Source: Desulfoarculaceae bacterium (GTDB lineage: Bacteria; Desulfobacterota; Desulfobulbia; Desulfobulbales; Desulfocapsaceae). Taken from it: a DNA stretch of 45,069 nucleotides. The stretch is taken from assembly GCA_019429465.1 (NCBI GenBank), contig JAHYIV010000024.1:1-45069 (forward strand). The letters are read 5' to 3'. Below, piece after piece: positions 9,001 to 29,849 of the stretch (its first letter is position 1; every line of letters begins with the position of its first letter). The notes beneath the pieces were generated by a model, which made no database searches, was not told the origin of the DNA, and was given only the letters and a program-made list of their open reading frames with translations. The position numbers and the translations under genes are program-made.

Positions 9001-9628
9001 GAATTACGGTCCGAATCTCCCCCTGACCGGGAGAGGGAGTCTTACTTTGCATGAAGGTGTCTTTGTCCTCAGGAATCGCCCCTTGGACATCGCCAGGGGG
9101 CGATTCTTCTTTACCGGTAATCCTTTGGAGAATCCTGGTATTGATGTTCTGGCCCAGAAAAAAACCAAACAAAAAACAGTAGGGGTTATCGTCTCTGGAA
9201 CATTGAGCGATATGGAGCTGAGACTTTTTTCTGATCCCCCCATGGCCGAGAGTGAGATCCTGACCGAACTGCTGGCTGGGCGTCCTGTCTCTGGAACCAG
9301 CAGCCAGATGGGTTCCATCGTGGGGGCAGTGGCCACGGGGATTGGTTTCGAGGAGGGCGGATCGTTTGTTGGCGATTTTGCCTCGCGCCTGCAAGATCAG
9401 TTGGGGCTCGATGATGTTTATGTGGAGGGTGGTGCCAATGCAACCGATGTCTCACTGATGATAGGGAAGGAGCTCTTTAAGGATCTGTATATCAGTTATG
9501 GGTATGACCCGTTTAGCGCCGCCAGTATATTCAGGGCCAGATATGATTTATGGAAGGGGTTTTCTGTTGAGACAGAGGTCGGCGCCGAGAAGACCGGTGC
9601 TGATTTGCTCTGGTCTATTGAAAAATAA
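6095..9628 (+). CDS. tamB: Translocation and assembly module protein TamB
   Basis: 1177 residues starting at GTG 6095, which overlaps the tamA stop. A single N-terminal signal anchor (LVSFLLLPLLIVLAALTFLG) places the protein in the inner membrane. A very long periplasmic stretch follows, of short beta-strand repeats rich in alternating hydrophobic residues and glycine, as expected for the AsmA/TamB beta-taco groove. The C-terminal ~350 residues form the DUF490 domain, with stretches such as SGTLSDMELRLFSDPPMAE, ILTELLAGRPVSGTS and a final YDLWKGFSVETEVGAEKTGADLLWSIEK-like end. Length is close to that of other TamB proteins (~1250). Known family roles are outer-membrane protein assembly with TamA and phospholipid transfer to the outer membrane. 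An R1 element begins right after the stop. Confidence 0.93.
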   Translation: MKRWRLVSFLLLPLLIVLAALTFLGLTENGLRQLARIATQVSGGVLAIEDVQGRLIGRWQLDGLQVQTAAADLSCKKIEVRWQPLALFQGTLQIITLHGEGVEVRIKDEGQAREDVSVILPIPVSWSPWTALQRLLLPGGIVFDTFELEDVSINDIGGMELLRVDKVSLELAAAKDQVTLKRFDFSIPGASLYVQGSVGLGGKWPLDLRGGWAMEEKESEHFGADFLIHGTLTDQLNAQVDFQTPVQTRVNLSCSDPLGDLRWQADAVLAQIRLSEVHPDWPELVLSSAEIRASGTRIAYQGTVQLAGSWAQSPQTLIEAELAGDLGGLRVSSLVVQLPEGQLALQGTVGWQDGFNWQLELEGEDVNPEPYFPDWQGRINTRASSSGRLQGDEFVGEMQLLALDGELLGYPLSGSGSVVIGEDGVLVKELLLRSGESELAVTGTVGAGTKDGVVDLHLRFDTENLGSLLPEAGGKAHLRGTVRGSREAPEFYFDLDAGTISYQDTVVQTLTGQGSFSPQGAVNVVIAGQGLQAGGTEFSTLSVNLGGTMARHQLQAQLTGAAGEIDLQLAGGLEAQSWQGEISDLLLRLDSYGDWQLKSPAPLRIDGEGVELSPVCLKQEENRLCLQGGWLSSGEWHLDADLDPLASDLLYQWDLSSFPVKGRLVASVQAAGLGTQLVKGEARISVPALQVALLDEDGREQLLRWTDTSLTLDLVDSRLVGVAKTLFQDGNTIDATIEVGQFGDLSAVWDELPIQGEIVLDAKDLSSLALLSNYRVTPTGSMKGTFAVDGRVGSPRLSGQLRQISGNIFIPATGITLEELLLSVVAKGEKEGMHLVLDAISGPGTIRVVGDIIREKQGGWQIDAIAIGKEFEVAHLPDYQIIINPDLRLVLRDRKIHVSGKLLVPRAVITIKEFDGPVAVSRDVVLVDSLEEDKGKGIPLVASVIVEMGEDVRIDSFGLKGRLMGGLTVNYGPNLPLTGRGSLTLHEGVFVLRNRPLDIARGRFFFTGNPLENPGIDVLAQKKTKQKTVGVIVSGTLSDMELRLFSDPPMAESEILTELLAGRPVSGTSSQMGSIVGAVATGIGFEEGGSFVGDFASRLQDQLGLDDVYVEGGANATDVSLMIGKELFKDLYISYGYDPFSAASIFRARYDLWKGFSVETEVGAEKTGADLLWSIEK

Positions 9629-9817
9629 AGGGAACTATCCAGCAGCACCTCATCTGCTTCGTCATCGGCCTGCTTATTTACAAACCAGTACACTTCGCAG
9701 GCCTCTTTCTCGCATATGAGGCGCTGCTGAATAGTTACATGACACGTGTTTTGGCATTTTTCCCGGCATTAAGCTGGATAGTTACAAATAAAGGGAACTG
9801 GATAGTTATAAATAAAC
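9623..9817 (+). repeat. R1 insertion site with three copies of the target duplication
   Basis: The order is AAATAAAG (9623-9630), complete R1 element (9631-9785), AAATAAAG (9786-9793), a 16-bp remnant GGAACTGGATAGTTAT (9794-9809), and AAATAAAC (9810-9817). The remnant consists of the first 6 bp and last 10 bp of an R1 element fused together. Its first 6 bp share the variant GGAACT start with the complete copy. See findings. Confidence 0.85.
9631..9785 (+). repeat. R1 element copy 2
   Basis: A complete copy of the ~154-bp element, starting GGAACTATCCAGCAGCACC (the usual GTAACT with one change) and ending GCTGGATAGTTAC. It is flanked by an exact 8-bp duplication, AAATAAAG. It lies 2 bp beyond the tamB stop and about 50 bp before the FMN reductase gene, in the same orientation as copies 1 and 5. 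Confidence 0.93.
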
Positions 9818-9833
9818 ATGAGAGGAGGATACT

Positions 9834-10409
9834 ATGAGAGTTGTGGCGTTCAGTGGCAGTGCCAGGAAAGATGGGAATACCGCGCTTCTGCTCAAGACCG
9901 TTCTTGGCGAGCTTGAGCAGGCAGGTGTTGAGACCGAGCTTGTCCAGCTTGCTGGTCAGGAAGTTCGTGGCTGTATTGCCTGTTATGAGTGTTTCAAGAA
10001 TAAAGATGGCTATTGTGCTGTCAAGAAGGATAGCATCAATGACTGTCTTGATAAGATGAAGGGAGCGGATGCTATTCTCCTTGGTTCACCCACCTATTTT
10101 GCCGATGTCTCCTCCGAGATGAAGGCGTTGATGGATCGTTGCGGCATGGTCAGCCGGGCCAACGGCGATCTTTTTAAAAGAAAGCTTGGCGCCGCAGTCG
10201 TTGCCGCCAGAAGGGCAGGTGCTATTCATGTCTTTGATTCCATTAATCATTTTTTTCTCATCGGCCAGATGATCGTAGTTGGTTCCAACTATTGGAACAT
10301 CGGGATGGGGCGTGAAAAAGAAGAGGTGGCCAAGGATGAAGAAGGGATGCAGACCATGCGTGTTCTGGGGCAGAACATGGCCTGGCTGTTGAAAAAGCTG
10401 GAAGATTGA
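9834..10409 (+). CDS. NAD(P)H-dependent FMN reductase / iron-sulfur flavoprotein-like protein
   Basis: 191-residue flavodoxin-fold protein. The N-terminal FMN phosphate loop is GSARKDGNTALLL (residues 8-20). The cysteine pair CIACYECF, followed by a further Cys (DGYCAVKKD), is typical of the NADPH-dependent FMN reductase/iron-sulfur flavoprotein group. The flavin-contacting GSPTYFADVSSEMKALMDR motif is intact. AGAGGAGG lies about 5 nt before the ATG. It is a cytoplasmic redox enzyme, but the physiological substrate cannot be deduced. The gene precedes a sigma-54 response regulator by 55 bp on the same strand and may be co-transcribed with it. The R1 element directly upstream separates it from tamB. 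Confidence 0.85.
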   Translation: MRVVAFSGSARKDGNTALLLKTVLGELEQAGVETELVQLAGQEVRGCIACYECFKNKDGYCAVKKDSINDCLDKMKGADAILLGSPTYFADVSSEMKALMDRCGMVSRANGDLFKRKLGAAVVAARRAGAIHVFDSINHFFLIGQMIVVGSNYWNIGMGREKEEVAKDEEGMQTMRVLGQNMAWLLKKLED

Positions 10410-10464
10410 TACCTGAATGCCGGATGATTACCGGATTTAAGCGATAGATAAAAAGGGAGCCGGC

Positions 10465-11838
10465 GTGACTAAGGAAGGGAAACAGGTAACTATTCTGGTG
10501 GTGGATGATGAACAGGTCCATCGCTACATGCTCAGCTCCATGCTCCGGGAATGGGGCTGGATGTGCGTGGAGGCCGATGATGGCCGGACCGCGGTTGAGG
10601 CGGTGGAGAACGCCGATTTTGATGCGGTGCTCATGGATGTCCGCATGGCCAGAATGGACGGGATGGAGGCCTTTTCCAGGATCCATATCCTGCAACCGGC
10701 CCTGCCGGTGGTGATCATGACCGCCTATTCGTCGGTGGATGACGCCGTGGAGGCGATGAAGCACGGGGCCCATGATTATCTGACCAAACCTCTTGATTTT
10801 GACCGTCTGCGTCTGACCCTGACTCGGGCCCTGGATCATCACCAGGTGGAGGAAAAACGGCAGCAGGTGCAGGCGGGAGAGAAGAGACCGCAGCCTTCGA
10901 GCAGCTCCATTATCGGGAATTCTCCTCCCATGGCGGAGTTGCTGGAGATGATCTCCTATGTGGCGGCCACTGAGGCTACCGTTCTGATTACCGGTGAGTC
11001 GGGAACCGGTAAAGAGCTGGTGGCAGCAGAGCTGCATAAAAACAGCGACCGGCATGACGGGCCTTTTGTCAAGGTCAACTGCGCGGCCCTGGCCGAGACC
11101 CTGCTGGAGTCTGAACTCTTTGGCCATGAAAAGGGAGCCTTTACCGGCGCTGACCGCAGGCGAGAGGGAAAGTTTGTCCAGGCGGACGGGGGGACGCTCT
11201 TTCTCGACGAAATAGGCGAGACTACTCAGGCCATGCAGGTCAAAATGCTGCGGGTCCTGCAGGAACATGAACTGCAACGGGTTGGTGGTGATGAGACCAT
11301 CAAGGTGGATGTGCGTATCCTGGCGGCCACCAATCGTGATCTGGCGGTTGAGGTCAAGGCGGGGCGATTCCGGGAGGATCTTTATTACCGCTTGAATGTG
11401 GTGACACTGTCCGTGCCGCCCCTGCGGGAGCGAAGGGAGGATATCCCCCTGCTGGTGAGCCATTTCGTGCGCAAGTTTTCCGAGAAGAACCGGAGGAGCG
11501 TGGAGTCGGTGACACCTAGGTGTATGGAACTGCTTGTCAGTTATGGTTGGCCAGGTAATGTGCGGGAGCTGGAAAACGCCATCGAACGCGGAGTGATCCT
11601 CATGCGTGGGGATCAACTCAGTGAAAAAAGCCTGCCCCTGCCCATTCAGAAACAGCAAGGAACAGGAAAAGGAACAATTGCCGGCCCTGCATCATTGCAG
11701 GAGGCAGAGAGGCTGCTGATCCTCCAGACCCTGGAAGAGACAGGCGGCAATAAGAGCGAAGCTGCCAGACGTCTGGGAATTACCAGAAAGACCCTGCAGA
11801 ACAAATTGCAAAGATATGATTTGAATTTTAAGCTGTAA
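10465..11838 (+). CDS. Sigma-54-dependent NtrC-family response regulator
   Basis: 457 residues from GTG 10465 (AAAAGGGAG just upstream). The receiver domain spans 1-125 with phospho-acceptor Asp58 (LMDVRMARMDG) and switch Lys in YLTKPLD. The AAA+ domain (about 148-385) has Walker A GESGTGKE (177-184), the sigma-54 contact loop GAFTGA (224-229) and Walker B GTLFLDEIGE. A C-terminal Fis-type helix-turn-helix follows (NKSEAARRLGITRKTLQNKL). It should activate sigma-54 promoters after phosphorylation. No partner kinase is adjacent: the kinase at 25.4 kb lies next to a different regulator. The closest functional relatives are the ZraR/HydG and AtoC groups, but targets cannot be assigned. Confidence 0.93.
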   Translation: MTKEGKQVTILVVDDEQVHRYMLSSMLREWGWMCVEADDGRTAVEAVENADFDAVLMDVRMARMDGMEAFSRIHILQPALPVVIMTAYSSVDDAVEAMKHGAHDYLTKPLDFDRLRLTLTRALDHHQVEEKRQQVQAGEKRPQPSSSSIIGNSPPMAELLEMISYVAATEATVLITGESGTGKELVAAELHKNSDRHDGPFVKVNCAALAETLLESELFGHEKGAFTGADRRREGKFVQADGGTLFLDEIGETTQAMQVKMLRVLQEHELQRVGGDETIKVDVRILAATNRDLAVEVKAGRFREDLYYRLNVVTLSVPPLRERREDIPLLVSHFVRKFSEKNRRSVESVTPRCMELLVSYGWPGNVRELENAIERGVILMRGDQLSEKSLPLPIQKQQGTGKGTIAGPASLQEAERLLILQTLEETGGNKSEAARRLGITRKTLQNKLQRYDLNFKL

Positions 11839-11909
11839 GTGGTAAGTTTTTTTGATTTGCCTCCATCTATAATTGGTCATGCCTTAATTTTTATTCAGGA
11901 GTTTGTTCA

Positions 11910-13214
11910 ATGAGAACAGATATAGTTCACATCGGGGCCGGAGAGCTGACATACGAGATCAGGAATATCGTGGGTGTCGGGATGAAGTTGCAGAAACTGG
12001 GGTTGACCACCAACTGGGAGAATATCGGCGATCCCATTGCCAAGGGTGAGCAGATTCCCCTGTGGATGAAGGAGATCGTGGCAGAGGCCGTGATGGATAA
12101 CTTGACCTATGGCTATTGCCCCACCAAGGGCGTGCTGGCCACCCGTGAGTTTATCGCCGCCGAGACCAACAAGCGGGGCGGGGCCCAGATTGATCCTGAG
12201 GATATCATCTTCTTTAATGGTCTGGGCGATGCCATTGCCAAGATCTTCGGCTTTCTGCGAAGCACGGCCCGGGTGCTGGTGCCGACGCCGAGTTATACGA
12301 CGCATTCGTCCGCCGAGGCCGCCCATGCCGGTGATAAGCCCCTGACCTATATCCTTGATCCGAATCATCATTGGTATCCTGATCTCGATGATCTGGAGAA
12401 GAGCGTCAAGTACAATCCGGCAGTGGCCGGCATCCTGATCATCAATCCCGATAACCCGACAGGCGCGGTCTATCCCCGGGAGATCCTCGAGGACATTGTC
12501 GAGATTGCCCATCGCTATGATCTGTTTATTATCTGTGACGAGGTCTATCACCATATCGTCTATAATGGGCAGTCCACACCATCACTCTCCGATGTGATCG
12601 GGGATGTTCCGGCCATTGCCATGCGCGGCATCTCCAAGGAGATGCCCTGGCCCGGTTCGCGCTGCGGCTGGATAGAGGTCTATAACGGCGATAAGGATCC
12701 CATGTTCGCCAAGTATATCCAGTCCATCCTTAATGCCAAGATGGTCGAGGTCTGTTCCACGACCCTGCCTCAGATGGTCTATCCCAAGGTAGTGACCCAT
12801 CCCGCCTATCAGGGCTATCTGCAGGAACGGATCAGTCGCTATGAAAAGTTCTCCAATATTGCCTATGAGAGTCTGAAGGATGTCAAGGGGGTGCTGGTCA
12901 ACCGTCCCAACGGTGCCTTTTATATGAGTGTCTGCTTTGAAGCAGGAATATTGAATCACCGGCAGACCCTGCCCATTGAAAATAAGGAGATCCGCAAACT
13001 GGTCGAATCGCTGGTTGCAGCTCCTGGTTCCTCCGTGGATAAGCGTTTTGTCTATTATCTGCTTGGTGCCACCGGGGTCTGCGTGGTACCGTTGACCTCG
13101 TTTGCCACCGATCTTCAGGGCTTTCGCATTACCCTGCTGGAACGTGACGAGGAAAAATTTATCCAGATTTTTCAGACGATTGCCCGATCTATTACCCAAT
13201 ATCTGAACAGTTGA
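11910..13214 (+). CDS. Class I/II PLP-dependent aminotransferase
   Basis: 434-residue fold-type I aminotransferase. Landmarks are YGYCPTKGVLATREFI near the N-terminus, the cofactor-contacting IINPDNPTGAVYP, DEVYHHIVY, and the PLP lysine in GISKEMPWPGSRCGW with the substrate-carboxylate arginine near the C-terminus (LQGFRITLLE). TTCAGGAG precedes the ATG. The family includes alanine, aspartate and aromatic aminotransferases. The small insert after the PLP lysine (EMPWPG in place of the usual xxxxG) is shared with some AlaT-like enzymes. The next gene is an amino acid symporter of the alanine/glycine family, making alanine or glycine a reasonable but unproven substrate. Confidence 0.87.
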   Translation: MRTDIVHIGAGELTYEIRNIVGVGMKLQKLGLTTNWENIGDPIAKGEQIPLWMKEIVAEAVMDNLTYGYCPTKGVLATREFIAAETNKRGGAQIDPEDIIFFNGLGDAIAKIFGFLRSTARVLVPTPSYTTHSSAEAAHAGDKPLTYILDPNHHWYPDLDDLEKSVKYNPAVAGILIINPDNPTGAVYPREILEDIVEIAHRYDLFIICDEVYHHIVYNGQSTPSLSDVIGDVPAIAMRGISKEMPWPGSRCGWIEVYNGDKDPMFAKYIQSILNAKMVEVCSTTLPQMVYPKVVTHPAYQGYLQERISRYEKFSNIAYESLKDVKGVLVNRPNGAFYMSVCFEAGILNHRQTLPIENKEIRKLVESLVAAPGSSVDKRFVYYLLGATGVCVVPLTSFATDLQGFRITLLERDEEKFIQIFQTIARSITQYLNS

Positions 13215-13439
13215 CAGCGCTTACGAAATAACTCCAAAAGGGGGAGTAAGACGAGAAATGGTCATTGCCCATGTCGAAATGTTCTATGATAGCAAATCCA
13301 TCTCCATATGGGAGCTCGTCCGCCTGAACAATGTGCGGAAATGCGACTTTACGAAAAAAAACACCTTCCAAACCCATCTTTCCTTGACCATATCAGACAG
13401 ACTCTTTCCCTCCCAAAAAATCATGCAAGGCATGCACCC

Positions 13440-14762
13440 ATGAATTTCATCGAAGTGTTGATTTCCATCCTTTCCGGCTGGATCTGGGGACCACCCATGC
13501 TGGCGCTGCTGGTGGGGACCGGCCTGTACCTGACCGTGATCCTGCGCGGTATGCAGTTTCGTGCCCTGCCCCACGCCCTGCGGCTGATCTGGCAGAAGGA
13601 GCACGGTGGCGACGGCGACATCAGTCATTTTGCCGCGCTGATGACGGCGCTTGCGGCAACGGTGGGGATCGGGAATATCGTCGGGGTGGCGACCGCCATC
13701 AGCCTTGGCGGACCCGGGGCGGTGTTCTGGATGTGGATGACCGGGCTAGTGGGGATGGCTACAAAATACGCGGAAGCAGTGCTGGCAGTGAAGTACCGGG
13801 AAAAGGGCGAACACGGCATGCGCGGCGGCCCCATGTACTACCTGGCCAAGGGTGCTGGTCTGCCCAAGCTGGCGTGGCTCTTTGCCCTGTTCACCGCCTT
13901 GGCGACCTTCGGTATCGGCAATATGACCCAGGCCAATGCGGTGGCCACCATTTTTCAATCGACCTTCAACATTGAACCATGGCTCACCGGCACCATCCTG
14001 ATGCTGCTGACCGGTCTGGTGATTCTAGGGGGTATCAAGTCCATCGGCAGGTTCACCTCCCTGCTGGTACCGTTCATGATCGTCGGCTACGTTAGTGCTG
14101 CGCTGCTGGTGTTGGCACTCAACGCCGGTGAAATCCCCCACGCCTTCGGACTGATTTTTTACCACGCCTTCAACCCCGCCGCGGCCTCCGGCGGCTTTGC
14201 CGGCTCGGTGGTGGCCGCCTCCATGCGCTACGGCATCGCCCGCGGCATCTTTTCCAATGAGTCGGGGCTGGGTTCGGCCCCTATTGCCGCGGCCGCCGCC
14301 CGGACCCGCGATCCGGTCAAACAGGCGCTGGTGAGCATGACCCAGACCTTCATCGACACCCTGGTGGTCTGCACCATAACCGCCTTGGTGATTCTGACCG
14401 GTCACTCCTGGCTGGAAGGGGTTGCGCCTGGGCAATTGACCAGCGCCAGCTTCGGCGAGACCCTGGGCCAGGGAGGGGTGGTGATTATAGCCGTGGCCAC
14501 GGCACTCTTTGCCTACTCCACTCTGATAGGCTGGAATTACTACGGGGAAAAGGCCATCGAGTATCTGGCGGGCCGTCGCGCCATTGCCCCCTACCGAGTG
14601 GTTTTTGTGGTGGTGGTGATCGTGGGGGCGATGATGAAACTGGAATTCGTCTGGAATTTTTCCGACCTCATGAACGGCATGATGGCCATCCCCAACATTG
14701 TCGGCCTGCTGCTGCTCTCCCAGGTGGTCAAGGCGGAAACCGAGCGGTATTTCAAAAAGTAA
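13440..14762 (+). CDS. Sodium:alanine/glycine symporter, AGCS family
   Basis: 440 residues from the ATG at 13440 (MNFIEVLIS). The open frame reaches back to 13308, but that extension is hydrophilic and AT-rich and does not resemble the family. About ten transmembrane segments are visible. Signature stretches are ATVGIGNIVGVATAI, the glycine-rich GGPGAVFWMW, RGGPMYYLA and SNESGLGSAPIAAAAART. The family imports alanine or glycine with Na+ at the inner membrane. The gene is GC-rich while the 225 bp before it are AT-rich, which could mean a transferred gene, but compositional evidence by eye is weak. It sits between an aminotransferase and hflX on the same strand. Confidence 0.92.
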   Translation: MNFIEVLISILSGWIWGPPMLALLVGTGLYLTVILRGMQFRALPHALRLIWQKEHGGDGDISHFAALMTALAATVGIGNIVGVATAISLGGPGAVFWMWMTGLVGMATKYAEAVLAVKYREKGEHGMRGGPMYYLAKGAGLPKLAWLFALFTALATFGIGNMTQANAVATIFQSTFNIEPWLTGTILMLLTGLVILGGIKSIGRFTSLLVPFMIVGYVSAALLVLALNAGEIPHAFGLIFYHAFNPAAASGGFAGSVVAASMRYGIARGIFSNESGLGSAPIAAAAARTRDPVKQALVSMTQTFIDTLVVCTITALVILTGHSWLEGVAPGQLTSASFGETLGQGGVVIIAVATALFAYSTLIGWNYYGEKAIEYLAGRRAIAPYRVVFVVVVIVGAMMKLEFVWNFSDLMNGMMAIPNIVGLLLLSQVVKAETERYFKK

Positions 14763-14807
14763 GGCACAGGGTATCGGCGGCAAAGCCCTGCCCTGTTTGC
14801 AAAGGTA

Positions 14808-16454: not shown

Positions 16455-16460
16455 TCTGGA

Positions 16461-16970: not shown

Positions 16971-16981
16971 AAAGATTTTTT

Positions 16982-17135
16982 GTAACTATCCAGCTTAATG
17001 CCGGGAAAATGCCAAAACACATGTCACGTAACTATTCAGCAGTGCCTCATATGCGGGAAAGAGGCCTGCGAAGTGTACTGATTCGTGCATGAGCAGACCG
17101 ATGACGAAGCAGATGAGGTGGTGCTGGATAGTTAC
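16982..17135 (-). repeat. R1 element copy 3
   Basis: A complete 154-bp copy, orientation opposite to copies 1, 2 and 5. It starts GTAACTATCCAGCTTAATGC and ends GTGCTGGATAGTTAC. Flanks are GATTTTTT (16974-16981) and GATGTTTT (17136-17143), an 8-bp duplication with one mismatch. It sits at the 5' edge of the zinc-ribbon/PilZ frame. Confidence 0.92.
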
Positions 17136-17435
17136 GATGTTTTACTATTATTTGACATTATATCAAAATTGTAGAGATTCCCCTTGAGAATAAAGCTTCT
17201 TTGTCAGAGGGAATCTTTAGCAATCAATGAAAAATATGGCTTGTGGCAGGATGTCAAACTGTCATTCAGGAGTCGTCAGACAATAACAGCTGTGTTCTGA
17301 CCATTTTAGGGCAACGGCCGTGAAGAGTCTGGCGCCGCTTGCCCTATAAGACGGACTTCCTATAGATGGGATGGCTTGGGGGGATGGAGAGCGACCTCCA
17401 CTTGGTGCCATTTCTCGCCATCCCGTTGACGACCA
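17136..17435. other. 300-bp non-coding stretch with several hairpins
   Basis: No convincing gene. Three inverted repeats are visible: AGATTCCC/GGGAATCT (17175-17182 and 17209-17216); AGGGCAACGGC paired with GCCGCTTGCCCT (one bulge) at about 17308-17346; and GGGATGGC/GCCATCCC (17368-17375 and 17417-17424). None has a clean T-tract. The region follows the pyrE operon on the minus strand, so it could be its 3' untranslated region or hold a small structured RNA. I recognise no known RNA family. Confidence 0.4.
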
Positions 17436-17606: not shown

Positions 17607-17611
17607 AACGT

Positions 17612-18163: not shown

Positions 18164-18363
18164 AATAAATCTCTTTATGCTTTTATTTTTTTAAGGTTAA
18201 CTCTCTGATTGATATAGTCTCTAAAAATACTTGTTTTATAAGGCTATTAAAAGAAAAAACTCGCATTAATGAAAAATGTCATGTTAGTTTGGACAAATAA
18301 ATGAGCATTCGGGGTAAACTCTTGTGGAAAATTATCGTTAGGGGCGGGGAAAATACTGGTTAT
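18164..18363. other. AT-rich upstream region of pyrE
   Basis: About 200 AT-rich bp between the pyrE start and repeat R3 copy A. TATAAA-like boxes on the minus strand (around 18236-18245) could be a -10 element for pyrE, but no matching -35 is evident. No coding frame of interest. Confidence 0.35.
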
Positions 18364-18497
18364 CTGAATTGCGATTGGATTTGGACCGGATCTGGCTGCA
18401 CTGATTGAGTAAAACCGCAGATGTAGTTACGCTCCATCGAGGATTTTGCGATTGAGGTGCGGTCAAAGATGCCCCGAAGAAGGGAAGCAAGATGGTA
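18364..18497 (-). repeat. R3 repeat copy A (134 bp)
   Basis: The reverse complement matches 28440-28573 over the full 134 bp with scattered substitutions. Shared blocks include GACCGCACCTCAATC, AAAATCCTCGATG and ACTACATCTGCGGTTTTACT. The centre forms an imperfect inverted repeat (AAAATCCTCGATGGAG against CTACATCTGCGGTTTT in this orientation). No protein frame spans it. Confidence 0.85.
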
Positions 18498-18678
18498 TGT
18501 CACTATTTTCCGCGCCCCTTATCTGGCGGGCTAAATGGTCGTTGTTTTTCCTCCTGCTCTGGAGTAAACAATACTGCACTATCCATGGCCATAATAACGA
18601 GATGATCAGAAAGCAGCAGGTGTTGTTTGACGGCTTCTTGCTTGTTGTGGTCTGCTCGTCGCATAAAATTCTGGTATG
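18498..18678. other. Non-coding spacer between R3 and the degenerate R1 copy
   Basis: No gene recognised. A small plus-strand frame (18446-18682) runs from the repeat into this spacer but has no family resemblance and an improbable composition. Confidence 0.3.
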
Positions 18679-18939
18679 GTAACTGTCCAGTAGCATCATC
18701 ACATCTGCTTTATCATCGGCTTGCTTCTGTTGCCGCATGCACGCTTTGCAGGTCTTCTGCGCGCCGTAGGTAAGCGAGCGTAGCGAGACTCCGTGTGTGG
18801 CCATGATGGACAGTTAGAGCCTGTGGTTTGAGTGCCTTACAGATTATTTTCTTGTTTTATTGTACGAAAATAATCTGCGAAAGGCACTTATCCCGTTCAT
18901 CGGGGTTAGTGCCTTTCCGGCATCAAGCTGGATATTTAT
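18679..18939 (+). repeat. Degenerate R1 element (copy 6) carrying an R2 hairpin
   Basis: The left part (GTAACTGTCCAGTAGCATC, then CATCTGCTTTATCATCGGCT) and the right end (TTTCCGGCATCAAGCTGGATATTTAT) match the R1 ends with many changes. The centre is replaced by unrelated sequence and by the R2 hairpin at 18831-18905. No target duplication can be seen. It lies directly upstream of glmS, ending 18 bp before the start codon and next to its ribosome binding site. Confidence 0.7.
18831..18905 (-). repeat. R2 hairpin repeat copy A
   Basis: On the minus strand it reads CCCCG-ACGGGATAAGTGCC followed by two long complementary arms: the left arm contains TTTCGCAGATTATTTTC and the right arm contains GAAAATAATCTGTAAGGCACT. 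Copies at 28360 and 40421 match almost base for base. The arms are about 24 bp around a loop of about 10 nt. There is no coding content. Confidence 0.85.
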
Positions 18940-18956
18940 AAAAATAGGAGTGAACT

Positions 18957-20801: not shown

Positions 20802-20815
20802 TGGGGAACTCTTGT

Positions 20816-21988: not shown

Positions 21989-22039
21989 TATTTCAGCACC
22001 GCCAGCGGGATTATGAAGGATAAGAGAGTGGAGAAAAGG

Positions 22040-23104: not shown

Positions 23105-23118
23105 AAGGAGAGCGGATC

Positions 23119-23571: not shown

Positions 23572-23601
23572 GGGCCGTCAGGAAAAAACTATTATCTTTC
23601 T

Positions 23602-23755
23602 GTAACTATTCAGCTTAATGCCGGGAAAATGCCAAAATACATGTCACGTAACTATTCAGCAGCGCCTTATGTGCAAGAAAGAGGCCTGCAAAGTGCACTG
23701 ATTCGTACATAAGCAGGCCGATGACGAAGCAGATGAGGTGCTGTTGGATAGTTAC
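23602..23755 (-). repeat. R1 element copy 4
   Basis: A complete 154-bp copy from GTAACTATTCAGCTTAATGC to TGTTGGATAGTTAC, in the same orientation as copy 3. It is flanked by an exact 8-bp duplication, ATCTTTCT at 23594-23601 and 23756-23763. It sits in the convergent gap between fabZ and the NtrC-type regulator. Confidence 0.95.
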
Positions 23756-23771
23756 ATCTTTCTGATCATTT

Positions 23772-23892
23772 CTTTACGCAGGCCATGAATGGCCCAGTGT
23801 CGCGAGCGCCATGGACGGCGTAGCAGCGACCGGCTCCTTATGCCGCTCCGGGCACTTAGATGGCCATGTTATTTTTTTACAGCGGCTTAGTT
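23772..23892. repeat. R4 palindromic repeat copy A
   Basis: The 53 bp at 23837-23889 (CTTATGCCGCTCC...TACAGCGGCTTA) match the reverse complement of 27338-27391 with few changes. The preceding part contains an imperfect palindrome (GTCGCGAGCGCC and GGCGTAGCAGCGAC). Similar blocks occur at 38670-38735. It lies between two convergent genes and may end transcription of either. Confidence 0.7.
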
Positions 23893-23936
23893 GGCTTTTT
23901 TTGTTGTGGCATGATCTGTCGGTCGCAACCAGGAAA

Positions 23937-25319
23937 TTATTCAATGACAATCTGATACCCCTTGATTTTGCTCAGCAGGGAAGGGTAGCTGAGCTCTAAT
24001 AATTTTGAGGCCTGGAGACGATTGCCCCCTGTCTCTTTCAAGGCCTTGGTGATTATTTGTTCTTCCATTGCTTTTTGCGCCTTTTTCAGGGAAAAACCGG
24101 TCATGAATTGTTCAAAACATGGTGGCGGAGTTGTCTGCACAAGGTGCGGCGGCAATTGGTCCAGGCCGATGGTTTGATCGTCTGCCAGCACAATCCCTCT
24201 TTGAATTATATTTTCCAACTCCCGGACATTGCCAGGCCAGGTATGAGTCAAGAATCTTGCCATGGCCTCAGCTGTTATTGAGCGAATCGTGGTTCCGAGT
24301 GCTCTGTTCAATTTTTTAAGAAAGTGATGGCATAAGAGGGGAATGTCTTCAGGTCTCTCTCGTAAGGGGGGAATGTGCAGGGTCAGAATATTGAGGCGAT
24401 AAAACAGGTCCTCTCGGAAGGTTCCCTGGTGCACCTCATCTTCCAGATTTCTGGCGGTTGCCGCCAGGATGCGAACATCGATTTGTTCTGTTTTGTTGGA
24501 GCCGACAGGTTTTATTTCGCCCTCCTGGAGGACCCGAAGGAGCTTGACCTGCATCTCCAGGGGAAGCTCACCTATCTCATCCAAGAAAAGTGTGCCCTTG
24601 TCTGCCTCGACCAGCAGGCCCTTCCTGGTTTTCTCTGCCCCGGTAAAGGCGCCTTTAACATAGCCAAAAAACTCACTCTCCAGTAAGTTCTCAGGGATAC
24701 TGCCACAGTTTACGGCTATAAAGGGCTGCCCGTTTCTTGGCGATGAGGCGTAGATCCCTCGGGCCACCAGTTCTTTGCCGGTGCCGGATTCACCGACGAT
24801 CAGGACGGTCGTATTGTAAGGAGCGACCTTTCTGGCCAGGGTGAAGAGGGAGTGCATGGACTTGCTGCTGGCGACCATCCTGTCAAAACCATCACCGGCA
24901 TTGATCTCTTCCAGCTGTTCTTTCAGCAGGCGGTTCTCCTGTCTCAGGCTCTCTCTTTCTTCTGCTTTTTTCAGGGTAAGCAGGACCTCGTCGCTCTTGA
25001 AGGGTTTTGAAATAAAATCATAAGCCCCGGCCTTGATCGCTTCCAGGGCCATGTCGATGGTGCCGTAGGCGGACATCATGATCACAGTTGATCTCTGGAT
25101 GGCCAGCCCTGCTTTCTGCAGAAATTCAATGCCGTCCATGTGCGGCATCCTGATATCACAGAGGATGAAATCGAACTGTTTCCCGGCAATCCTGTTCAGG
25201 GCATCCTGACCATCAACGGCGGTTTCTACTGTATAGCCATGACGACTCACCATGGCCTGCAGCATGTGACGCATATTCTCCTCGTCATCGACGATAAGCA
25301 ATGTTCTGTTCTTGGCCAT
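23937..25319 (-). CDS. Sigma-54-dependent NtrC-family response regulator
   Basis: 460 residues. Receiver domain with Asp55 (LCDIRMPHMDG) and Lys in FISKPFKSDE; a coiled-coil linker (ERESLRQENRLLKEQLEEI); AAA+ domain with Walker A GESGTGKE (176-183), GAFTGA (223-228) and GTLFLDEIGELP; and a C-terminal Fis-type HTH (NRLQASKLLELSYPSLLSKI). It follows the sensor kinase gene by 43 nt and is surely its partner. The gene upstream of that kinase is a heavy-metal binding protein, so a metal or envelope-stress signal is possible, but nothing in the sequence identifies it. It is clearly a different subfamily member from the regulator at 10465. Confidence 0.94.
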   Translation of the reverse strand: MAKNRTLLIVDDEENMRHMLQAMVSRHGYTVETAVDGQDALNRIAGKQFDFILCDIRMPHMDGIEFLQKAGLAIQRSTVIMMSAYGTIDMALEAIKAGAYDFISKPFKSDEVLLTLKKAEERESLRQENRLLKEQLEEINAGDGFDRMVASSKSMHSLFTLARKVAPYNTTVLIVGESGTGKELVARGIYASSPRNGQPFIAVNCGSIPENLLESEFFGYVKGAFTGAEKTRKGLLVEADKGTLFLDEIGELPLEMQVKLLRVLQEGEIKPVGSNKTEQIDVRILAATARNLEDEVHQGTFREDLFYRLNILTLHIPPLRERPEDIPLLCHHFLKKLNRALGTTIRSITAEAMARFLTHTWPGNVRELENIIQRGIVLADDQTIGLDQLPPHLVQTTPPPCFEQFMTGFSLKKAQKAMEEQIITKALKETGGNRLQASKLLELSYPSLLSKIKGYQIVIE

Positions 25320-25362
25320 TATTAGTGAAACATGAGTTGTGAAGGAATATCAGTAGATTGGC

Positions 25363-26877
25363 TTAATGATTTGCCGACAATGGGAGAAGAATGGATACCG
25401 TGGCTCCCTGACCTTCCTCTCCTTGTATCTGCATCTGTCCGTGGGCGCCTTCAACAAGCGCATAGGAGACAGAAAGGCCAAGGCCGGTTCCTTGGCCTGG
25501 TTCCTTGGTGGTAAAGAATGGGTCAAACAGGCTGTTCTTGTCTGCGTCTTTGATCCCTGCTCCGTTGTCCTCTATCGTGATCTGAATGCATGGTTTTCCT
25601 GCGTCACGGGTGGTGTTGACAGTAGAAAGATATATCTTGCCCTTGTCTGGACCATTGCCTTCTTTGATGGCATCAATGGCATTGAGCAGACAGTTGAGAA
25701 AAACCTGATGTAAGCTCTCTGCTCCGACTGCTACCCGATCATATTCCGCATCAAGATGCAAGTGAAACTCCAGACCAGCCAGTTTTTTCTGGGCCTGCAG
25801 CATGTCAACAAGTTTCTGGAGTAATGGATGGATCTCCGTACTACCAGAGTCATCGGTCCGGCTCCTGGAAAAATCCAGAAGTTGGTGAATCAGGCGACTG
25901 ATCCGTTCCAGTTCCTGTAGGGAACGACCGGAAAATTGTTGCTGTTCCTCTTTTGATAAACCAGATTGTCCCAACAGCTCAAGATACCCCTGGACAATGC
26001 CAATGGGATTGCCAATCTCATGGGCAAGACCGGCAGCCAGTCTGCCGATTGCTGCCATCTTTTCAGTCTGTACCATTTTTTGCTGAGTGGCCCGCAGCTG
26101 TTGATTCGCTTTTTCAAGTGAACTCACGGTCTCCCGCAGTTTGTGCCTGTCATCGTCAATCCGATGCATCATTCTGTTCAGGGCAATGGAAAGCTGGCCA
26201 AATTCATTCCCCTCTTGATCAGACAGAAAGGGGCTGTTTTCAGCGCTCTGATAGGTGTCCGTCAGGGTAACCAGATGTTCAATGGGGCGAACCACCACTT
26301 GAATGAAACGAAACAGGCCGATGGTTGTCAGGATAATAACATTGACCAAGAGGTAGATATAGGCAATCCGACGTCCCTGATTCACCTGCTCATAGACGGA
26401 TTGTAAAGAGGTCGTGACGCCGATGGAGCCTCGTACTCCATGCTGCTCTATGGGGACGGCAGTCACCAGAGTCGTGTGCCTGAGAAAAAGAAGCCCTGGG
26501 CTGGTGTCGATCGTTTGTGTGCTGGCAATTCCTGTCCCAATAATCTGCTCAAGATGTTTCTGCAGTGCTGAGTCTGCTGGGCCACAATGTTCGGGGATTC
26601 TGGTGACGATATTATTGATGGAGAGCATGAGGCAGGAAGCGCCCAGATCCTTTTGGAGCTGGGTCAGAACCTCAGGTGGAAAAAGTACCTTATTGTCTGC
26701 TGTCTGTATGGCAATATTGACCGCAGTAGAGAGGACCACCACGGTCTTTTCCATTTCTGACCGCAGTAAGCTCCGTTGCCAGAAGATGGTAATAACCAGG
26801 GTTATCAGGAGCATGCCGATCGTCAGGAGAATTGCAAGAATGGCGGTAATCTGGGATTTAATACCTTTCGATCTCAT
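25363..26877 (-). CDS. Membrane sensor histidine kinase
   Basis: 504 residues from ATG 26877; a GTG at 26886 in the same frame is a weaker alternative. TM1 lies at about 12-35, followed by a ~140-residue periplasmic sensor region containing two isolated cysteines, TM2 at about 173-193 and HAMP at about 195-250. The HisKA helix has the phosphorylated His in [20 protein letters not shown] (about residue 286). The ATPase domain has the N box (NAIDAIKEG), G1 DNGAGI, the F box and G2 [18 protein letters not shown]. The HEIGNP-type dimerisation helix is typical of kinases paired with NtrC-family regulators, and the gene for such a regulator follows. The signal is not identifiable. Confidence 0.94.
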
Positions 26878-26997
26878 CTCTCTCACAGATTTGGGGCTTA
26901 ATGGCAGAATTTAGCAATGGCATTATGGCAGTAGAAATCTGGGCGTGAGATTGAAGAGGGCAGGCACTGAAATGACCAGTCCTGCTCCTCGGGATCT

Positions 26998-27192
26998 CTA
27001 TTGAATGACCTCAAAGCCAATCCTGGTGATGGCCTCTTTCACTGTTTGGATATCAACGTTGCCGTCGAATACAGCCTCGCCTTTTGCCAGATCTATCTGG
27101 ACATTAGAGACCCCGGGTATTGCTTCAAGAGCTTTACGGGTAGAAGCTACGCAGTGTTGACAGCTCATGCCTTTCACTTTTATTTTTGTCAT
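26998..27192 (-). CDS. Heavy-metal-associated domain protein, CopZ/MerP-like
   Basis: 64 residues forming one ferredoxin-like HMA domain. The metal-binding motif is GMSCQHC (residues 8-14), followed by the usual helix and the partner segment SNVQIDLAKGEAVFDG. No signal peptide is present, so it is cytoplasmic like CopZ rather than periplasmic like MerP. It would carry Cu(I) or another soft metal to a P-type ATPase, but no such ATPase is in the window. It lies 112 nt upstream of the sensor kinase on the same strand, with its own AAGGAG-type ribosome binding site. Co-regulation with that kinase is possible. Confidence 0.9.
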   Translation of the reverse strand: MTKIKVKGMSCQHCVASTRKALEAIPGVSNVQIDLAKGEAVFDGNVDIQTVKEAITRIGFEVIQ

Positions 27193-27337
27193 GTCTTCTC
27201 CTTGTGTTGTCTTGAATTTTGTCAGGTAAAATATTCGAATCCATTTAATTATACTGGAGTATCTTGTAAAAGTCTATTCTGCTTCGTTGTGAAAAAGCGG
27301 CACACCTTAAAGGTGTTTGGTGTCTCGTCCGGATCGT
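27193..27337. other. Upstream region of the HMA-domain gene
   Basis: No gene seen. AT-rich DNA near 27230-27265 could carry the promoter of the metal-binding protein gene. A short inverted repeat (CACCTTAAAGGTG) lies at about 27303-27315. Confidence 0.3.
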
Positions 27338-27453
27338 TAAGCCGCTGTAAAAAAAACAACATGGCCATCTAAGTGTCCGGAGCGGCATAAGCGGCATACA
27401 AGGAGCCGTAACGAAATAGATATAAATGGCCATGTTATTTCGTAACGGCTCCT
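27338..27453. repeat. R4 palindromic repeat copy B with an 18-bp perfect stem
   Basis: 27338-27391 is the inverse copy of 23837-23889. It is followed by a perfect 18-bp inverted repeat, AGGAGCCGTAACGAAATA (27401-27418) and its complement (27436-27453), around a 17-nt loop. Part of the loop (AAATGGCCATG) repeats a block of the R4 core. No coding content. Confidence 0.75.
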
Positions 27454-27516
27454 AAGCTGCAAGAATCCAAACGCGAGACCCTGCTCACTTTTACGAGTGC
27501 AACCTTTGATACAGAT

Positions 27517-27567
27517 AAAAAAAGGAAAGGGCCTGACTCTTCGCAAGTCAGGCCCTTTCCTTTTTTT
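27517..27567 (-). terminator. Strong bidirectional-looking terminator after the comEA-like gene
   Basis: A 22-bp stem (A-run plus GGAAAGGGCCTGACT, with its complement) around the 7-nt loop CTTCGCA, with A/T runs on both outer sides. It lies 49 nt past the comEA-like stop, and its T-run faces the minus-strand transcript, as expected for intrinsic termination. Confidence 0.92.
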
Positions 27568-27615
27568 ATCCGGATGTTGACTGAAAAATCAGTTCAGCCA
27601 ACTCAGGGTACGTTA

Positions 27616-27867
27616 CTATATTTCAATCTCTTGCTCTACTTTCTCCAGCATTTTTGGGCCGATCCCTTTTACCTGGAGCAGTCCTTCCTTTGTTTTAAAG
27701 TTACCATTCTGGGTCCGGTAATCGATAATGGCTGCGGCTTTGGCTGCGCCAATCCCTGGAAGAGTCTCAAGCGCTGCCTGGTCGGCGTTGTTGATATTGA
27801 CGGCAGCAAAGGCTGCACTTGCCAGGAAAAGCAGGGTGAAAATAAACAGTACTGTTTTTTTGATCAT
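27616..27867 (-). CDS. ComEA-like helix-hairpin-helix DNA-binding protein
   Basis: 83 residues. An N-terminal signal peptide (KKTVLFIFTLLFLASAAFA) is followed directly by a ComEA-type double helix-hairpin-helix: VNINNADQAALETLPGIG and GLLQVKGIGPKMLEKV. This is the short exported form of ComEA found widely in Gram-negative bacteria. Known relatives bind double-stranded DNA in the periplasm during natural transformation. No other competence gene except pilT (39.3 kb) is in the window, so a role in DNA uptake is only suggested. A clear terminator follows at 27517-27567 and GGAGAA precedes the start. Confidence 0.9.
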   Translation of the reverse strand: MIKKTVLFIFTLLFLASAAFAAVNINNADQAALETLPGIGAAKAAAIIDYRTQNGNFKTKEGLLQVKGIGPKMLEKVEQEIEI

Positions 27868-28359
27868 TTTTTCTCCTTTACCAATGAATTTCTCTTTTTA
27901 TGAGAAAAGGTTTAGCCCTGCCCTGTTGCTCATGGCGCACGAACGACAGTCACAGGAATGTTTGAGTCTTTGAACTGTAGCCGATGAGAAAAATGAAGTA
28001 AATGGGTACAAATACTCAATTTTACGATTAATTTGTGTTGTTTTGTTTGTTGCTTACATGAAATCTTGATAAAATAAAAGCTCTGGTACAGGTCTGTTGT
28101 ACCCATGTAGATGACAGTGAGTGTGTTGATTTTATTGACGTCTGTGTTGTTTTTCATTGCGCGTTCGTGGCCGTCACTGTTCGGTCAAAATTCCAAGACG
28201 ATGAATTTCAAGGTTCTTTGGAATCTTGCAGGGCCGTTAACCGGTAAGCGGATTTTTTGTCAGGATGGGTCAGGGGAGAGGAGACTGCTTCGTTCCTTTC
28301 ATTTACTGGTTGCATTTACTGTTCCTTTGTTTACAGTAAATAGGGACGCGAAAAATACG
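27868..28359. other. Gene-free region upstream of ppk2
   Basis: About 490 bp with no supportable gene on either strand. The left part is AT-rich (27990-28090) and probably carries the comEA promoter on the minus strand. From 28360 the R2 and R3 repeats begin. A candidate plus-strand frame at 28111-28422 is rejected. Confidence 0.4.
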
Positions 28360-28435
28360 AACCCCGTGAGCGGGATAAGTGCCTTTCGCAGATTATTTTC
28401 TTGCAAAAAAACAAGAAAATAATCCGTAAGGCACT
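28360..28435 (+). repeat. R2 hairpin repeat copy B
   Basis: ACCCCGTGAGCGGGATAAGT leads into arms AGTGCCTTTCGCAGATTATT(TTCTTG) and (CAAGAA)AATAATCCGTAAGGCACT around a short A-rich loop. The match to the copies at 18831 and 40421 covers about 77 bp. R3 copy B begins 4 bp after it. Confidence 0.9.
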
Positions 28436-28439
28436 ACTA

Positions 28440-28573
28440 TACCATCTTGCTTTCCGTCTTCGGGACATCTTTGACCGCACCTCAATCACAAAATCCTCGA
28501 TGTAGCGCAACTACATCTGCGGTTTTACTCAATCGGTGCCGCCAAATCTGGCCCAAATCCAGTCGCAATTCAG
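28440..28573 (+). repeat. R3 repeat copy B (134 bp)
   Basis: Collinear with the reverse complement of 18364-18497. The centre is an imperfect inverted repeat around CGCAA: AAAATCCTCGATGTAG and CTACATCTGCGGTTTT. It lies 64 bp upstream of the first ppk2 and could form part of its leader. Confidence 0.85.
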
Positions 28574-28637
28574 GTACATCCGTATTCTCCGAGTCCCTTA
28601 GGCTTGTCTATAACGTCATCTTCTCCAGGATTACAAT

Positions 28638-29609
28638 ATGTCCTCATCTGCCAATAAGAAGCAGCTCCTCAACAGGCCGGAACATAAAGGAGCAACAGCT
28701 CTTATCCGTCAGCTTGTCAAAAATCTTGATAATGAATTGAAAAAATACTCATCTGTTGGCATAAGTGAGATTGTTGAAGAATTGAAGGTGCGACAAAAAG
28801 AAAAAATAGTCGCATCTGCACTTCTTAGCTATTGTTCTTCTGAAGAATTGAAACCTTTTCAGGCTGAACTGATCAAGATGCATGCCCATCTTGAACGAAC
28901 CGGTAAAAAGATGATTGTTCTTTTTGATGGTCGTGATGCCTCGGGAAAAGGGGGAACAATCCGGGCTGTTACCAGATATATGAATGAAAAACGATACAGG
29001 ATAGAGGCCCTGGGAAAACCGACAGAAGAGCAGAGAACAGAGTTGCATATGAAACGCTATATCGAGCGTTTTCCTCATGCCGGGGAAATAGTTCTTTTTG
29101 ACCGAAGCTGGTATAATCGCGCCATGGTTGAACCGGTTATGGGCTTTTGTTCTAATGAGCAGTATCATCGATTTTTGCATAAGGTTACCACCTATGAAGA
29201 GAATTTTATCCTGGACGCCGGTAAGACCATTCTCCTGAAGCTTTATTTCTCAGTGACCAAGGAGGAACAGGCCAGGAGATTTGAACGACGTAAAAATGAT
29301 CCCCTGCGTCAATGGAAGCTGAGTGAGGTCGATCTGCAGGCACAGGAATTGTGGAACGAGTTTACCCAAAAGAAAAAGATCCTCCTGCAGAAAACCCATA
29401 CCAAGGATTCAAAATGGTGGGTCATTCGTTCTGACAATAAGCATCTTGCCAGACTGGAGACGATGAAATTGATTCTCCGTTCAGTAAAATACCGGGGACG
29501 CAGTCGGACCTTGGACTTTTCGGCGAATCCCGAGGTTGTTATTGCAGGTGACAAAGAACTGCATATTATGCTGAAACAGGAAAAAGAGTTTGGTGTTCCC
29601 TTGAGTTGA
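28638..29609 (+). CDS. ppk2: Polyphosphate kinase 2 family protein (first paralogue)
   Basis: 323 residues with a P-loop kinase fold. Walker A is GRDASGKGGT (98-107) and the PPK2 signature with Walker B is VLFDRSWYNR (about 152-161), followed by VEPVMGFCSNEQ. The single-domain architecture matches class I PPK2, which uses polyphosphate to phosphorylate nucleoside diphosphates; substrate class cannot be proved by eye. The ~85-residue N-terminal arm is longer than in the neighbour at 29850. The two paralogues lie in tandem on the same strand with an R1 element between them. R2 and R3 repeats fill the upstream region. The ribosome binding site is weak (CCAGGA). Confidence 0.92.
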   Translation: MSSSANKKQLLNRPEHKGATALIRQLVKNLDNELKKYSSVGISEIVEELKVRQKEKIVASALLSYCSSEELKPFQAELIKMHAHLERTGKKMIVLFDGRDASGKGGTIRAVTRYMNEKRYRIEALGKPTEEQRTELHMKRYIERFPHAGEIVLFDRSWYNRAMVEPVMGFCSNEQYHRFLHKVTTYEENFILDAGKTILLKLYFSVTKEEQARRFERRKNDPLRQWKLSEVDLQAQELWNEFTQKKKILLQKTHTKDSKWWVIRSDNKHLARLETMKLILRSVKYRGRSRTLDFSANPEVVIAGDKELHIMLKQEKEFGVPLS

Positions 29610-29662
29610 GCAAAGGTATTGGAGAAACCTGTGTCTCTGCTGGTTGTTACTCTATGATTTCT

Positions 29663-29817
29663 GTAACTATCCAGCAGCACACCTCATCTGCTTCGTCATC
29701 GGGCTGCTCATGACAAATCAGTACACTTCGCACGCCTCTTTCTCGCATATTAGGCACTGCTGAATAGTTACGTGACATGTGTTTTGGCATTTCCCCGGCA
29801 TTAAGCTGGATAGTTAC
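29663..29817 (+). repeat. R1 element copy 5
   Basis: A complete 155-bp copy from GTAACTATCCAGCAGCACAC to AAGCTGGATAGTTAC, oriented as copies 1 and 2. Flanks are TGATTTCT (29655-29662) and TAATTTCT (29818-29825), an 8-bp duplication with one mismatch. It separates the two ppk2 genes and ends 32 bp before the second start codon. Confidence 0.93.
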
Positions 29818-29849
29818 TAATTTCTCTGATAAAGAAGGATGCAAGTACC

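What the first reader, a model, noticed from the sequence alone, without database searches (positions are those of the whole stretch)
9623..29825. Family of ~154-bp non-autonomous elements (R1) with 8-bp target duplications and IS66-like GTAA ends
Five clear copies (1-127 truncated, 9631-9785, 16982-17135, 23602-23755, 29663-29817) and a degenerate one (18679-18939) lie in 30 kb, all between genes. Ends are inverted (GTAACTATYCAGC). Flanking 8-bp duplications are exact at copies 2 and 4 (AAATAAAG, ATCTTTCT) and 7/8 at copies 3 and 5. This shows transposition as a discrete unit with no coding capacity, i.e. a MITE. IS66-family elements are known for 5'-GTAA ends and 8-bp duplications, so an IS66-like transposase may move it in trans. 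The density suggests a recent, genome-wide burst.
Basis: partly seen in the sequence, partly recalled or inferred. Interest (0 to 1): 0.7.

Follow-up and report, generated by a model that had tools for sequence, protein, structure and literature searches.

The report
Jumping DNA hairpin of sulfur bacteria
A short piece of DNA that codes for no known protein has spread to dozens of places in this bacterial genome, probably by borrowing the enzyme of another jumping element, and its folded core is shared by most sampled genera of an order of sulfur bacteria while its ends differ, which points to something more than ordinary junk DNA.

Summary
The genome carries 61 distinct places with the element's hairpin. 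Of 50 own copies testable, 41 have an 8-bp target duplication with at most one mismatch, 34 exact, control 0 (38 and 31 without positional slip). One window copy has empty orthologous sites in congeners. IS66 transposase fragments in the same genome end in the same 13 bp.

The finding is larger than it looked. The 154 bp are an outer left end, a ~33-bp spacer and a 108-bp imperfect hairpin. The hairpin occurs in 130 of 193 sampled genomes of the order (Desulfobulbales, inferred from records) and in some genomes elsewhere in the phylum. Over 62 diverse cores its stems covary strongly (29 of 38 pairs doubly changed). The terminal arms differ between lineages, and two arm types match the ends of IS66 elements: GTAACTATYCAGC and GTAA..ATCACRGGG. 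Interior conserved with ends exchanged is the reverse of an ordinary MITE. Most likely a MITE lineage mobilised in trans by IS66-family transposases and selected for its hairpin. Why the hairpin is kept is not shown.

The parts
1..127 (-). Copy 1, cut by the contig end (outer end 115-127, spacer, hairpin part 1-81)
   Evidence: identical 127 bp at another contig end (C38); R1 40.4 bits at 1-54
9631..9785 (-). Copy 2: hairpin 9631-9738, spacer, outer end 9773-9785
   Evidence: 107.4 bits
9623..9630 (.). 8-bp target duplication of copy 2 (first side); contains the stop codon of the TamB-like gene 6095-9628
   Evidence: exact 8 of 8; TamB
9786..9793 (.). 8-bp target duplication of copy 2 (second side)
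16982..17135 (+). Copy 3: outer end 16982-16994, spacer, hairpin 17028-17135
   Evidence: 105.9 bits
16974..16981 (.). Target duplication of copy 3, 7 of 8
17136..17143 (.). Target duplication of copy 3, second side
18679..18817 (-). Degenerate old relative of the hairpin core
   Evidence: motif; only 16.4 bits, E 0.044, over 18707-18764
23602..23755 (+). Copy 4: outer end 23602-23614, spacer 23615-23647, hairpin 23648-23755
   Evidence: fold z -9.8; 105.5 bits
23594..23601 (.). Target duplication of copy 4, exact
23756..23763 (.). Target duplication of copy 4, second side
29663..29817 (-). Copy 5, between two PPK2 genes: hairpin 29663-29771, outer end 29805-29817; absent from the same gene pair in 14 congener loci
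   Evidence: 83.4 bits
29655..29662 (.). Target duplication of copy 5, 7 of 8
29818..29825 (.). Target duplication of copy 5, second side

Best explanation
It is a non-autonomous transposable element (MITE) of a lineage spread through Desulfobulbales. It is mobilised in trans by IS66-family transposases of the single-ORF (ISBst12-like) kind, which recognise the GTAA-starting ~13-bp ends and duplicate 8 bp of target. The moved unit runs from an outer left end, over a ~33-bp spacer of conserved length but free sequence, to the right end of a hairpin. The hairpin (~106-108 bp) is kept by selection on its fold in one strand, most simply selection at the level of the element (mobility, or tolerance by the host). 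The lineage persists by changing its end sequences to match whichever IS66 lineage is around. Shown: repeats, duplications, empty sites at one locus, matching IS66 ends, covariation, wide spread, differing ends. Inferred: trans-mobilisation, the ISBst12-like assignment of the partner (from element length and ends), end exchange as adaptation to transposases, and element-level selection for the fold.
For: Own genome: 61 distinct places. TSD of at least 7 of 8: 41 of 50 tested own copies, 34 exact, control 0; other genomes 67 of 166, 45 exact, control 2, with 63 of the 67 using the outer left end (one base of slip allowed on each side). Without slip: own 38 of 50 (31 exact), others 58 of 167 (40 exact), no control hit. 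Same end on IS66 fragments at three contig starts with three different flanks, and on a left-end fragment. Two IS66 elements delimited by exact 8-bp duplications carry two of the MITE end types: GTAACTATTCAGC/GTAACCATTCAGC (1730 bp, G030) and GTAAGCTATCACAGGG/GTAACTGATCACGGGG (1555 bp, G005). PMC12898284 (passages): ISDge4, ISBst12 group of IS66, has ends GTAACTGCTCAGCA/GTGACTACTCAGCA, one ORF and an 8-bp repeat. Structure: 29 of 38 pairs doubly changed, 94.6% of cells paired, slid controls 22-41%. Spread: 130 of 193 genomes, 51 of 62 genera. Empty site: spacer 77 bp after removal against 64-107 bp in 12 of 14 congener loci.
Against: IS66 presence does not go with element presence across the order: PF03050 in 49 of 130 carriers and 24 of 63 non-carriers, odds ratio 0.98. 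G054 has many closely alike copies and G042 several, and neither has a PF03050 match; assembly gaps or loss of the partner may explain this, which is not shown. No full IS66 was seen in the own genome, and the genes of both relatives' elements look broken. The MITE shares only about 13 bp with the IS, so it is not a simple internal deletion. Within the genome the outer ends are only slightly less variable than the rest (2.1% and 2.8% against 3.3-3.4%, 41 full-length copies), so end conservation gives little support. Element-level selection does not by itself explain why the internal loops stay unpaired.
Confidence: 0.78

Rival explanations
1. The hairpin is a functional RNA: a structured, strand-specific module (internal loops with G-A-rich, kink-turn-like sequence) that acts in transcripts, with the IS66 ends as its vehicle.
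For: Strong covariation; purine-rich internal loops, the left one conserved outside the columns fixed by my pattern; wobble G-U cells 259 against A-C 46 on the modelled strand, so the fold is kept on one strand; hairpin wider than one end type and found beyond the order; element often just after gene 3' ends (98 of 159 neighbouring 3' ends within -10..30 nt against 58 of 165 5' ends).
Against: No orientation bias in favour of the sense strand: in tandem gene pairs the own genome has 11 sense, 8 antisense; other genomes 22 sense, 48 antisense. By columns the G-U excess is modest (20 against 15 columns with at least 2 cells). No Rfam family matches. No transcript data.
Confidence: 0.2
2. The concerted arm changes are a mutational by-product: template switching within an imperfect palindrome copies one arm onto the other, without selection on the fold.
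For: Such correction of quasi-palindromes is known in bacteria (recalled). One copy has its core inverted behind the 46-bp left part, with an exact duplication (L061/L098), which shows the hairpin can be rearranged.
Against: It would be expected to erase the internal loops too, yet they stay unpaired, with the caveat that part of the right loop was fixed by the search pattern in 38 of 62 rows; it does not predict the strand asymmetry of wobble pairs.
Confidence: 0.12
3. A fixed structural or regulatory repeat (such as a terminator) rather than a mobile element.
For: Stable fold (z -9.8 to -12.2 over five cores); frequent position just after gene 3' ends; 114 of 145 elements not overlapped by a called ORF.
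Against: Duplications in 41 of 50 own copies; empty site in congeners at the one locus tested.
Confidence: 0.02

Closest known systems
ISBst12 group of the IS66 family (e.g. ISDge4, PMC12898284, passages read)
   Same: Ends GTAACTGCTCAGCA-like, 8-bp duplication; IS66 elements in these genomes carry the element's ends
   Different: Those are transposase-coding elements (1.55-1.73 kb in the two relatives measured here); this one has no gene and an unrelated hairpin interior
ERIC/RU-1 of Enterobacteriaceae (PMC2229807 and PMC10969869, passages)
   Same: About 100-150 bp, mostly intergenic, long stem-loop, spread over a whole host group, copy number varies
   Different: Other hosts; here 8-bp duplications and IS66-type ends, a bipartite left end, and ends that differ between lineages while the interior stays. 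Not compared by sequence
Chunjie MITE of Geobacter uraniireducens (described in PMC10969869, passages; original paper not held)
   Same: Non-coding MITE with inverted and direct repeats, mostly intergenic, in a bacterium of the same or a neighbouring phylum (placement recalled)
   Different: 178-235 bp, described from one species; sequence not compared here
Correia/NEMIS, RUP, CIR (PMC2229807, passages)
   Same: Small mobile or repeated hairpins; folds proposed or shown to act in transcripts for some
   Different: Different hosts and ends as summarised there; not compared by sequence

Membership tests
MITE | Short, no transposase gene | tested here: met
   154 bp; five of six frames of the 108-bp consensus core hold a stop, one antisense frame is open for 36 codons
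MITE | Terminal inverted repeats | tested here: met
   GTAACTATYCAGC at both ends
MITE | Target-site duplication | tested here: met
   41 of 50 with at least 7 of 8, control 0 of 50
MITE | Many copies and empty sites | tested here: met
   61 places; empty at the one locus tested, PPK2 pair, in congeners
IS66/ISBst12-mobilised element | GTAA ends and 8-bp duplication | tested here: met
   published example
IS66/ISBst12-mobilised element | IS66 with the same ends in the same genome | tested here: met
   Three contig starts with an IS66 transposase 3' end followed by GCTGGATAGTTAC, and one left end; only fragments at contig ends seen
IS66/ISBst12-mobilised element | IS66 present wherever the element is | tested here: not met
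   PF03050 in 49 of 130 carriers, 24 of 63 non-carriers; draft genomes, capped scoring
IS66/ISBst12-mobilised element | Transposase moves it in trans | not testable with these tools
   needs an assay
ERIC/RU-1 | Enterobacterial/Vibrio host range | tested here: not met
   80 listed loci of a capped scan of 84,980 species: no enterobacterium among the titles; order and phylum searches
Rfam RNA families | Match at gathering score | tested here: not met
   none on the window or on 17 element-bearing loci, 15 of other genomes and 2 of the own (one tRNA only)

The most novel reading that the evidence does not exclude
A mobile structured nucleic acid that reaches beyond one order of its phylum: a hairpin with covarying stems and conserved G-A-rich internal loops that acts as RNA (or as a folded single DNA strand) and survives by exchanging its transposon ends to ride on successive IS66 lineages, so that the cargo, not the ends, defines the element.
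Probability: 0.25. Interest if true: 0.8.

Novelty: new variant of a known kind. Interest (0 to 1): 0.58.

Why it matters
MITEs are normally defined by their ends and have disposable interiors. Here the interior fold is shared by 51 of 62 sampled genera of an order and by some genomes beyond it, while the ends differ and resemble those of different IS66 elements. That makes two open questions testable: what keeps a non-coding mobile hairpin alive over long times, and how non-autonomous elements switch transposases. It also offers insertion sites as markers in Desulfobulbales and accounts for at least one contig break here.

Tried and rejected
Coding hypothesis: by reading, the 108-bp core looked open for 36 codons in some copies; rejected, since the own-genome consensus has a stop in that frame and core lengths vary between species; an antisense frame of 36 codons stays open in the consensus and was not followed further. 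Derivation from an IS66 by internal deletion: not supported, since the IS left ends seen have no second GTAA repeat at 46 bp and only about 13 bp are shared. Sense-strand mRNA function shown by orientation: not supported (the first version, dropped 31 of 145 elements overlapped by called ORFs and was replaced; the element is masked with stops, so it cannot test whether genes span it). IS66 co-occurrence across the order: no association. Strong conservation of the ends within the genome: one search suggested it (1.5% at the ends), but those alignments were trimmed; on 41 full-length copies the difference is small, so I dropped it. Viral contigs: pattern absent. Literature: searches listed no report of this family in the held open-access library; most subscription papers are missing, so it may be described elsewhere.

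Rows dropped: in the TSD test, of 55 distinct own motif places 3 lacked a right end and 2 a left candidate; of 187 in other genomes 13 lacked a right end, 6 a left candidate and 1 was cut (one search tested 166 of these). Cores shorter than 100 bp, and 3 of 164 without a readable left end, were left out; representatives had to be 100-120 bp; six of 68 were left out of A1 for odd lengths or ends. L220-L249 (fetched but not listed by name) were left out and kept. In one search, loci under 1500 bp and elements under 300 bp from a locus end were left out.
Full report
CHECK. Five copies of the element lie in the window as described. Four are end to end (9631-9785, 16982-17135, 23602-23755, 29663-29817). 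The fifth (1-127) is cut by the contig end: the same 127 bp stand at the end of contig C38, so it is most simply an assembly break. Target duplications are 8 of 8 at copies 2 and 4 and 7 of 8 at copies 3 and 5. The degenerate copy is about 18679-18817 and weak (16.4 bits, E 0.044).

OWN GENOME. The window is contig C49 of a 2.84-Mb, 72-contig genome. A 154-bp query gave 42 matches with 40 of 73 candidates scored. The covariance model gave 109 hits on both strands (150 of 1370 candidates scored), which I count as 61 distinct places, four of them partial at contig ends. Of 55 distinct motif places held, 50 had ends that could be tested. Of these, 41 have at least 7 of 8 matching flanking bases (34 exact) when one base of slip is allowed on each side, against 0 of 50 for shifted flanks; without slip 38 and 31, control none. 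Fifty near-full copies differ from their consensus by a median of 3.0% (range 0 to 26%). Copy 5 sits between two PPK2 genes. In 14 congener loci the same gene pair is 64-107 bp apart in 12, and 176 and 207 bp apart in two that hold other sequence. The own spacer of 240 bp is 77 bp once the 155-bp element and one 8-bp copy are taken away. This is an empty site; only this one locus was tested.

ANATOMY. The unit is: outer end GTAACTATCCAGC, a ~33-bp spacer, then a 108-bp core that starts with a second GTAACTATTCAGC and ends with the inverted GCTGGATAGTTAC. The core alone is an imperfect hairpin (z -9.8 and -10.1 in the two window copies folded, -10.3 to -12.2 in three from relatives). The functional left end is nearly always the outer one: in other genomes 63 of 67 duplications fit the outer end, 4 (all 7 of 8) a shorter unit. 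One core-only insertion is in the own genome (L054, exact CACCATTT on both sides by reading; the script placed its left end wrongly). One copy carries its core inverted behind the left part with an exact duplication (L061/L098).

PARTNER. PF03050 finds one IS66 transposase 3' end in the own genome, and the own-protein search finds it at three contig starts. Each is followed by GCTGGATAGTTAC, with different flanks. Contig C50 holds a left end beginning GTAACTATCCAGC that runs into a gene start like that of a relative's IS66. That relative's element (G030) is 1730 bp with ends GTAACTATTCAGC/GTAACCATTCAGC and exact 8-bp duplication GCCCACAC; its gene reads in two open pieces (131 and 364 codons), so it may be broken. 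A second IS66, in congener G005 (1555 bp, duplication GAACCGTC exact, gene matched in two pieces with a stop), ends GTAAGCTATCACAGGG/GTAACTGATCACGGGG. That is the other end type seen on hairpins of the family, e.g. in L145, L188 and L209. PMC12898284 (passages) describes ISDge4 of the ISBst12 group with ends GTAACTGCTCAGCA/GTGACTACTCAGCA, one ORF and an 8-bp repeat; the assignment of the partner to that group is inference from ends and length. Against a tight link: IS66 genes are no commoner in carriers (49 of 130) than in non-carriers (24 of 63), and G054 and G042 have 14 (the scoring limit) and 9 matches but no PF03050 match.

SPREAD. BLAST of the 154 bp finds it in 20 of 58 genomes searched, own included. 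An exact pattern from the right half finds at least 110 stretches in the named genome collection (the scan stopped at its limit). Of the 80 listed loci all but one are titled Desulfobulbaceae, Desulfocapsa, Desulfurivibrio, Ca. Desulfatifera, Desulfobacterales, Deltaproteobacteria or unspecified proteobacteria; the Kiritimatiellae locus shows no hairpin arms by eye and is probably chance. Contig lengths identify congener G005 with the Desulfocapsa sp. ppb01 record (9311 and 107984 bases), and NCBI places Desulfocapsaceae in Desulfobulbales (genus to family recalled); the host's name rests on this. The model finds the hairpin in 130 of 193 genomes of the order, 51 of 62 genera, with limited scoring per genome, and in 29 of 297 genomes drawn from the phylum, 6 of them from the own order with the own genome counted. 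Of the other 23, G232 and G334 have 13 matches (the limit) and G268 has 7, while many have one weak match and may not all be relatives.

CONSERVED FOLD. A1 holds 62 cores chosen to be no more than about 92% alike. RNAalifold gives 31 pairs, 27 with changes on both sides. With a 38-pair structure taken from L150, 94.6% of cells are paired, 29 pairs have double changes and 221 cells are doubly changed, against 51 plus or minus 6 in shuffles; sliding the partner gives 22-41% paired. Caveat: 38 of the 62 rows were fetched by an exact pattern that fixes part of the right half. Of the 27 pairs outside that stretch, 24 have double changes (my count). Wobble cells (259) far exceed A-C cells (46), which points to folding of one strand, but by columns the excess is small (20 against 15). 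The left internal loop (e.g. GCGAAAGAGG) is conserved outside the pattern; the right loop (GATGACAAAGC or GATGACGAAGC) is partly fixed by it. A kink-turn-like reading of the loops is mine and recalled, not tested. No Rfam family matches.

POSITION. With the element masked, 162 elements have neighbours called by a simple ORF method. Neighbouring gene 3' ends lie within -10..30 nt in 98 of 159 cases, 5' ends in 58 of 165. In tandem gene pairs the own genome has 11 sense and 8 antisense; others 22 and 48 (p 0.0025, one of several tests). So no sense bias, if anything the reverse. Unmasked, 31 of 145 elements were overlapped by a called ORF. Window copy 2 has its duplication over the stop codon of a TamB-like gene.

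INTERPRETATION. The MITE reading is well supported. The stronger point is that the interior fold is what is shared across the order while the ends differ in concert and resemble the ends of different IS66 elements. I take this as a MITE lineage that exchanges ends to follow its transposases and is selected for its hairpin, most likely at the level of the element. Whether the hairpin works as RNA, as folded DNA during transposition, or only protects the element is open. Passages on ERIC, Correia, RUP and CIR show that hairpins on small mobile elements are a known kind; I found no report of this family in the searches listed.

Noticed in passing
window 18831-18904, 28362-28435, 40424-40498; L354: A second, 75-bp hairpin repeat (GATTATTTTCTTG..CAAGAAAATAATC, GTGCCTT arms), three copies in the window; a similar hairpin sits in the PPK2 spacer of congener G010, and in L052 a ~50-bp mini-element with GTAACTATCCAGC..GGACAGTTAC ends lies inside what looks like such a repeat (by eye).
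   Followed up: partly
window 18361-18498 and 28439-28576: Inverted pair of 138 bp, 91% complementary, near the 75-bp hairpins.
   Followed up: no
window 23837-23878 and 27350-27391: Inverted 42-bp repeat, 95% complementary.
   Followed up: no
L056 around 1014-1185; L052 around 1034: Other miniature elements with the same GTAACTATCCAGC-type end but unrelated interiors, so several kinds of cargo seem to use these ends.
   Followed up: partly
L051: An element interrupted by a different miniature element (ends GTGTCTGTCC/GGACAGGCAC), with what looks like a 6-bp duplication TAACTA.
   Followed up: no
other genomes' loci: Excess of antisense over sense orientation in tandem gene pairs, 48 to 22, unexplained.
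   Followed up: no
L152 and L160; L163 and L174: Same insertion context in two different genomes each, so some insertions may be older than the species (by eye).
   Followed up: no
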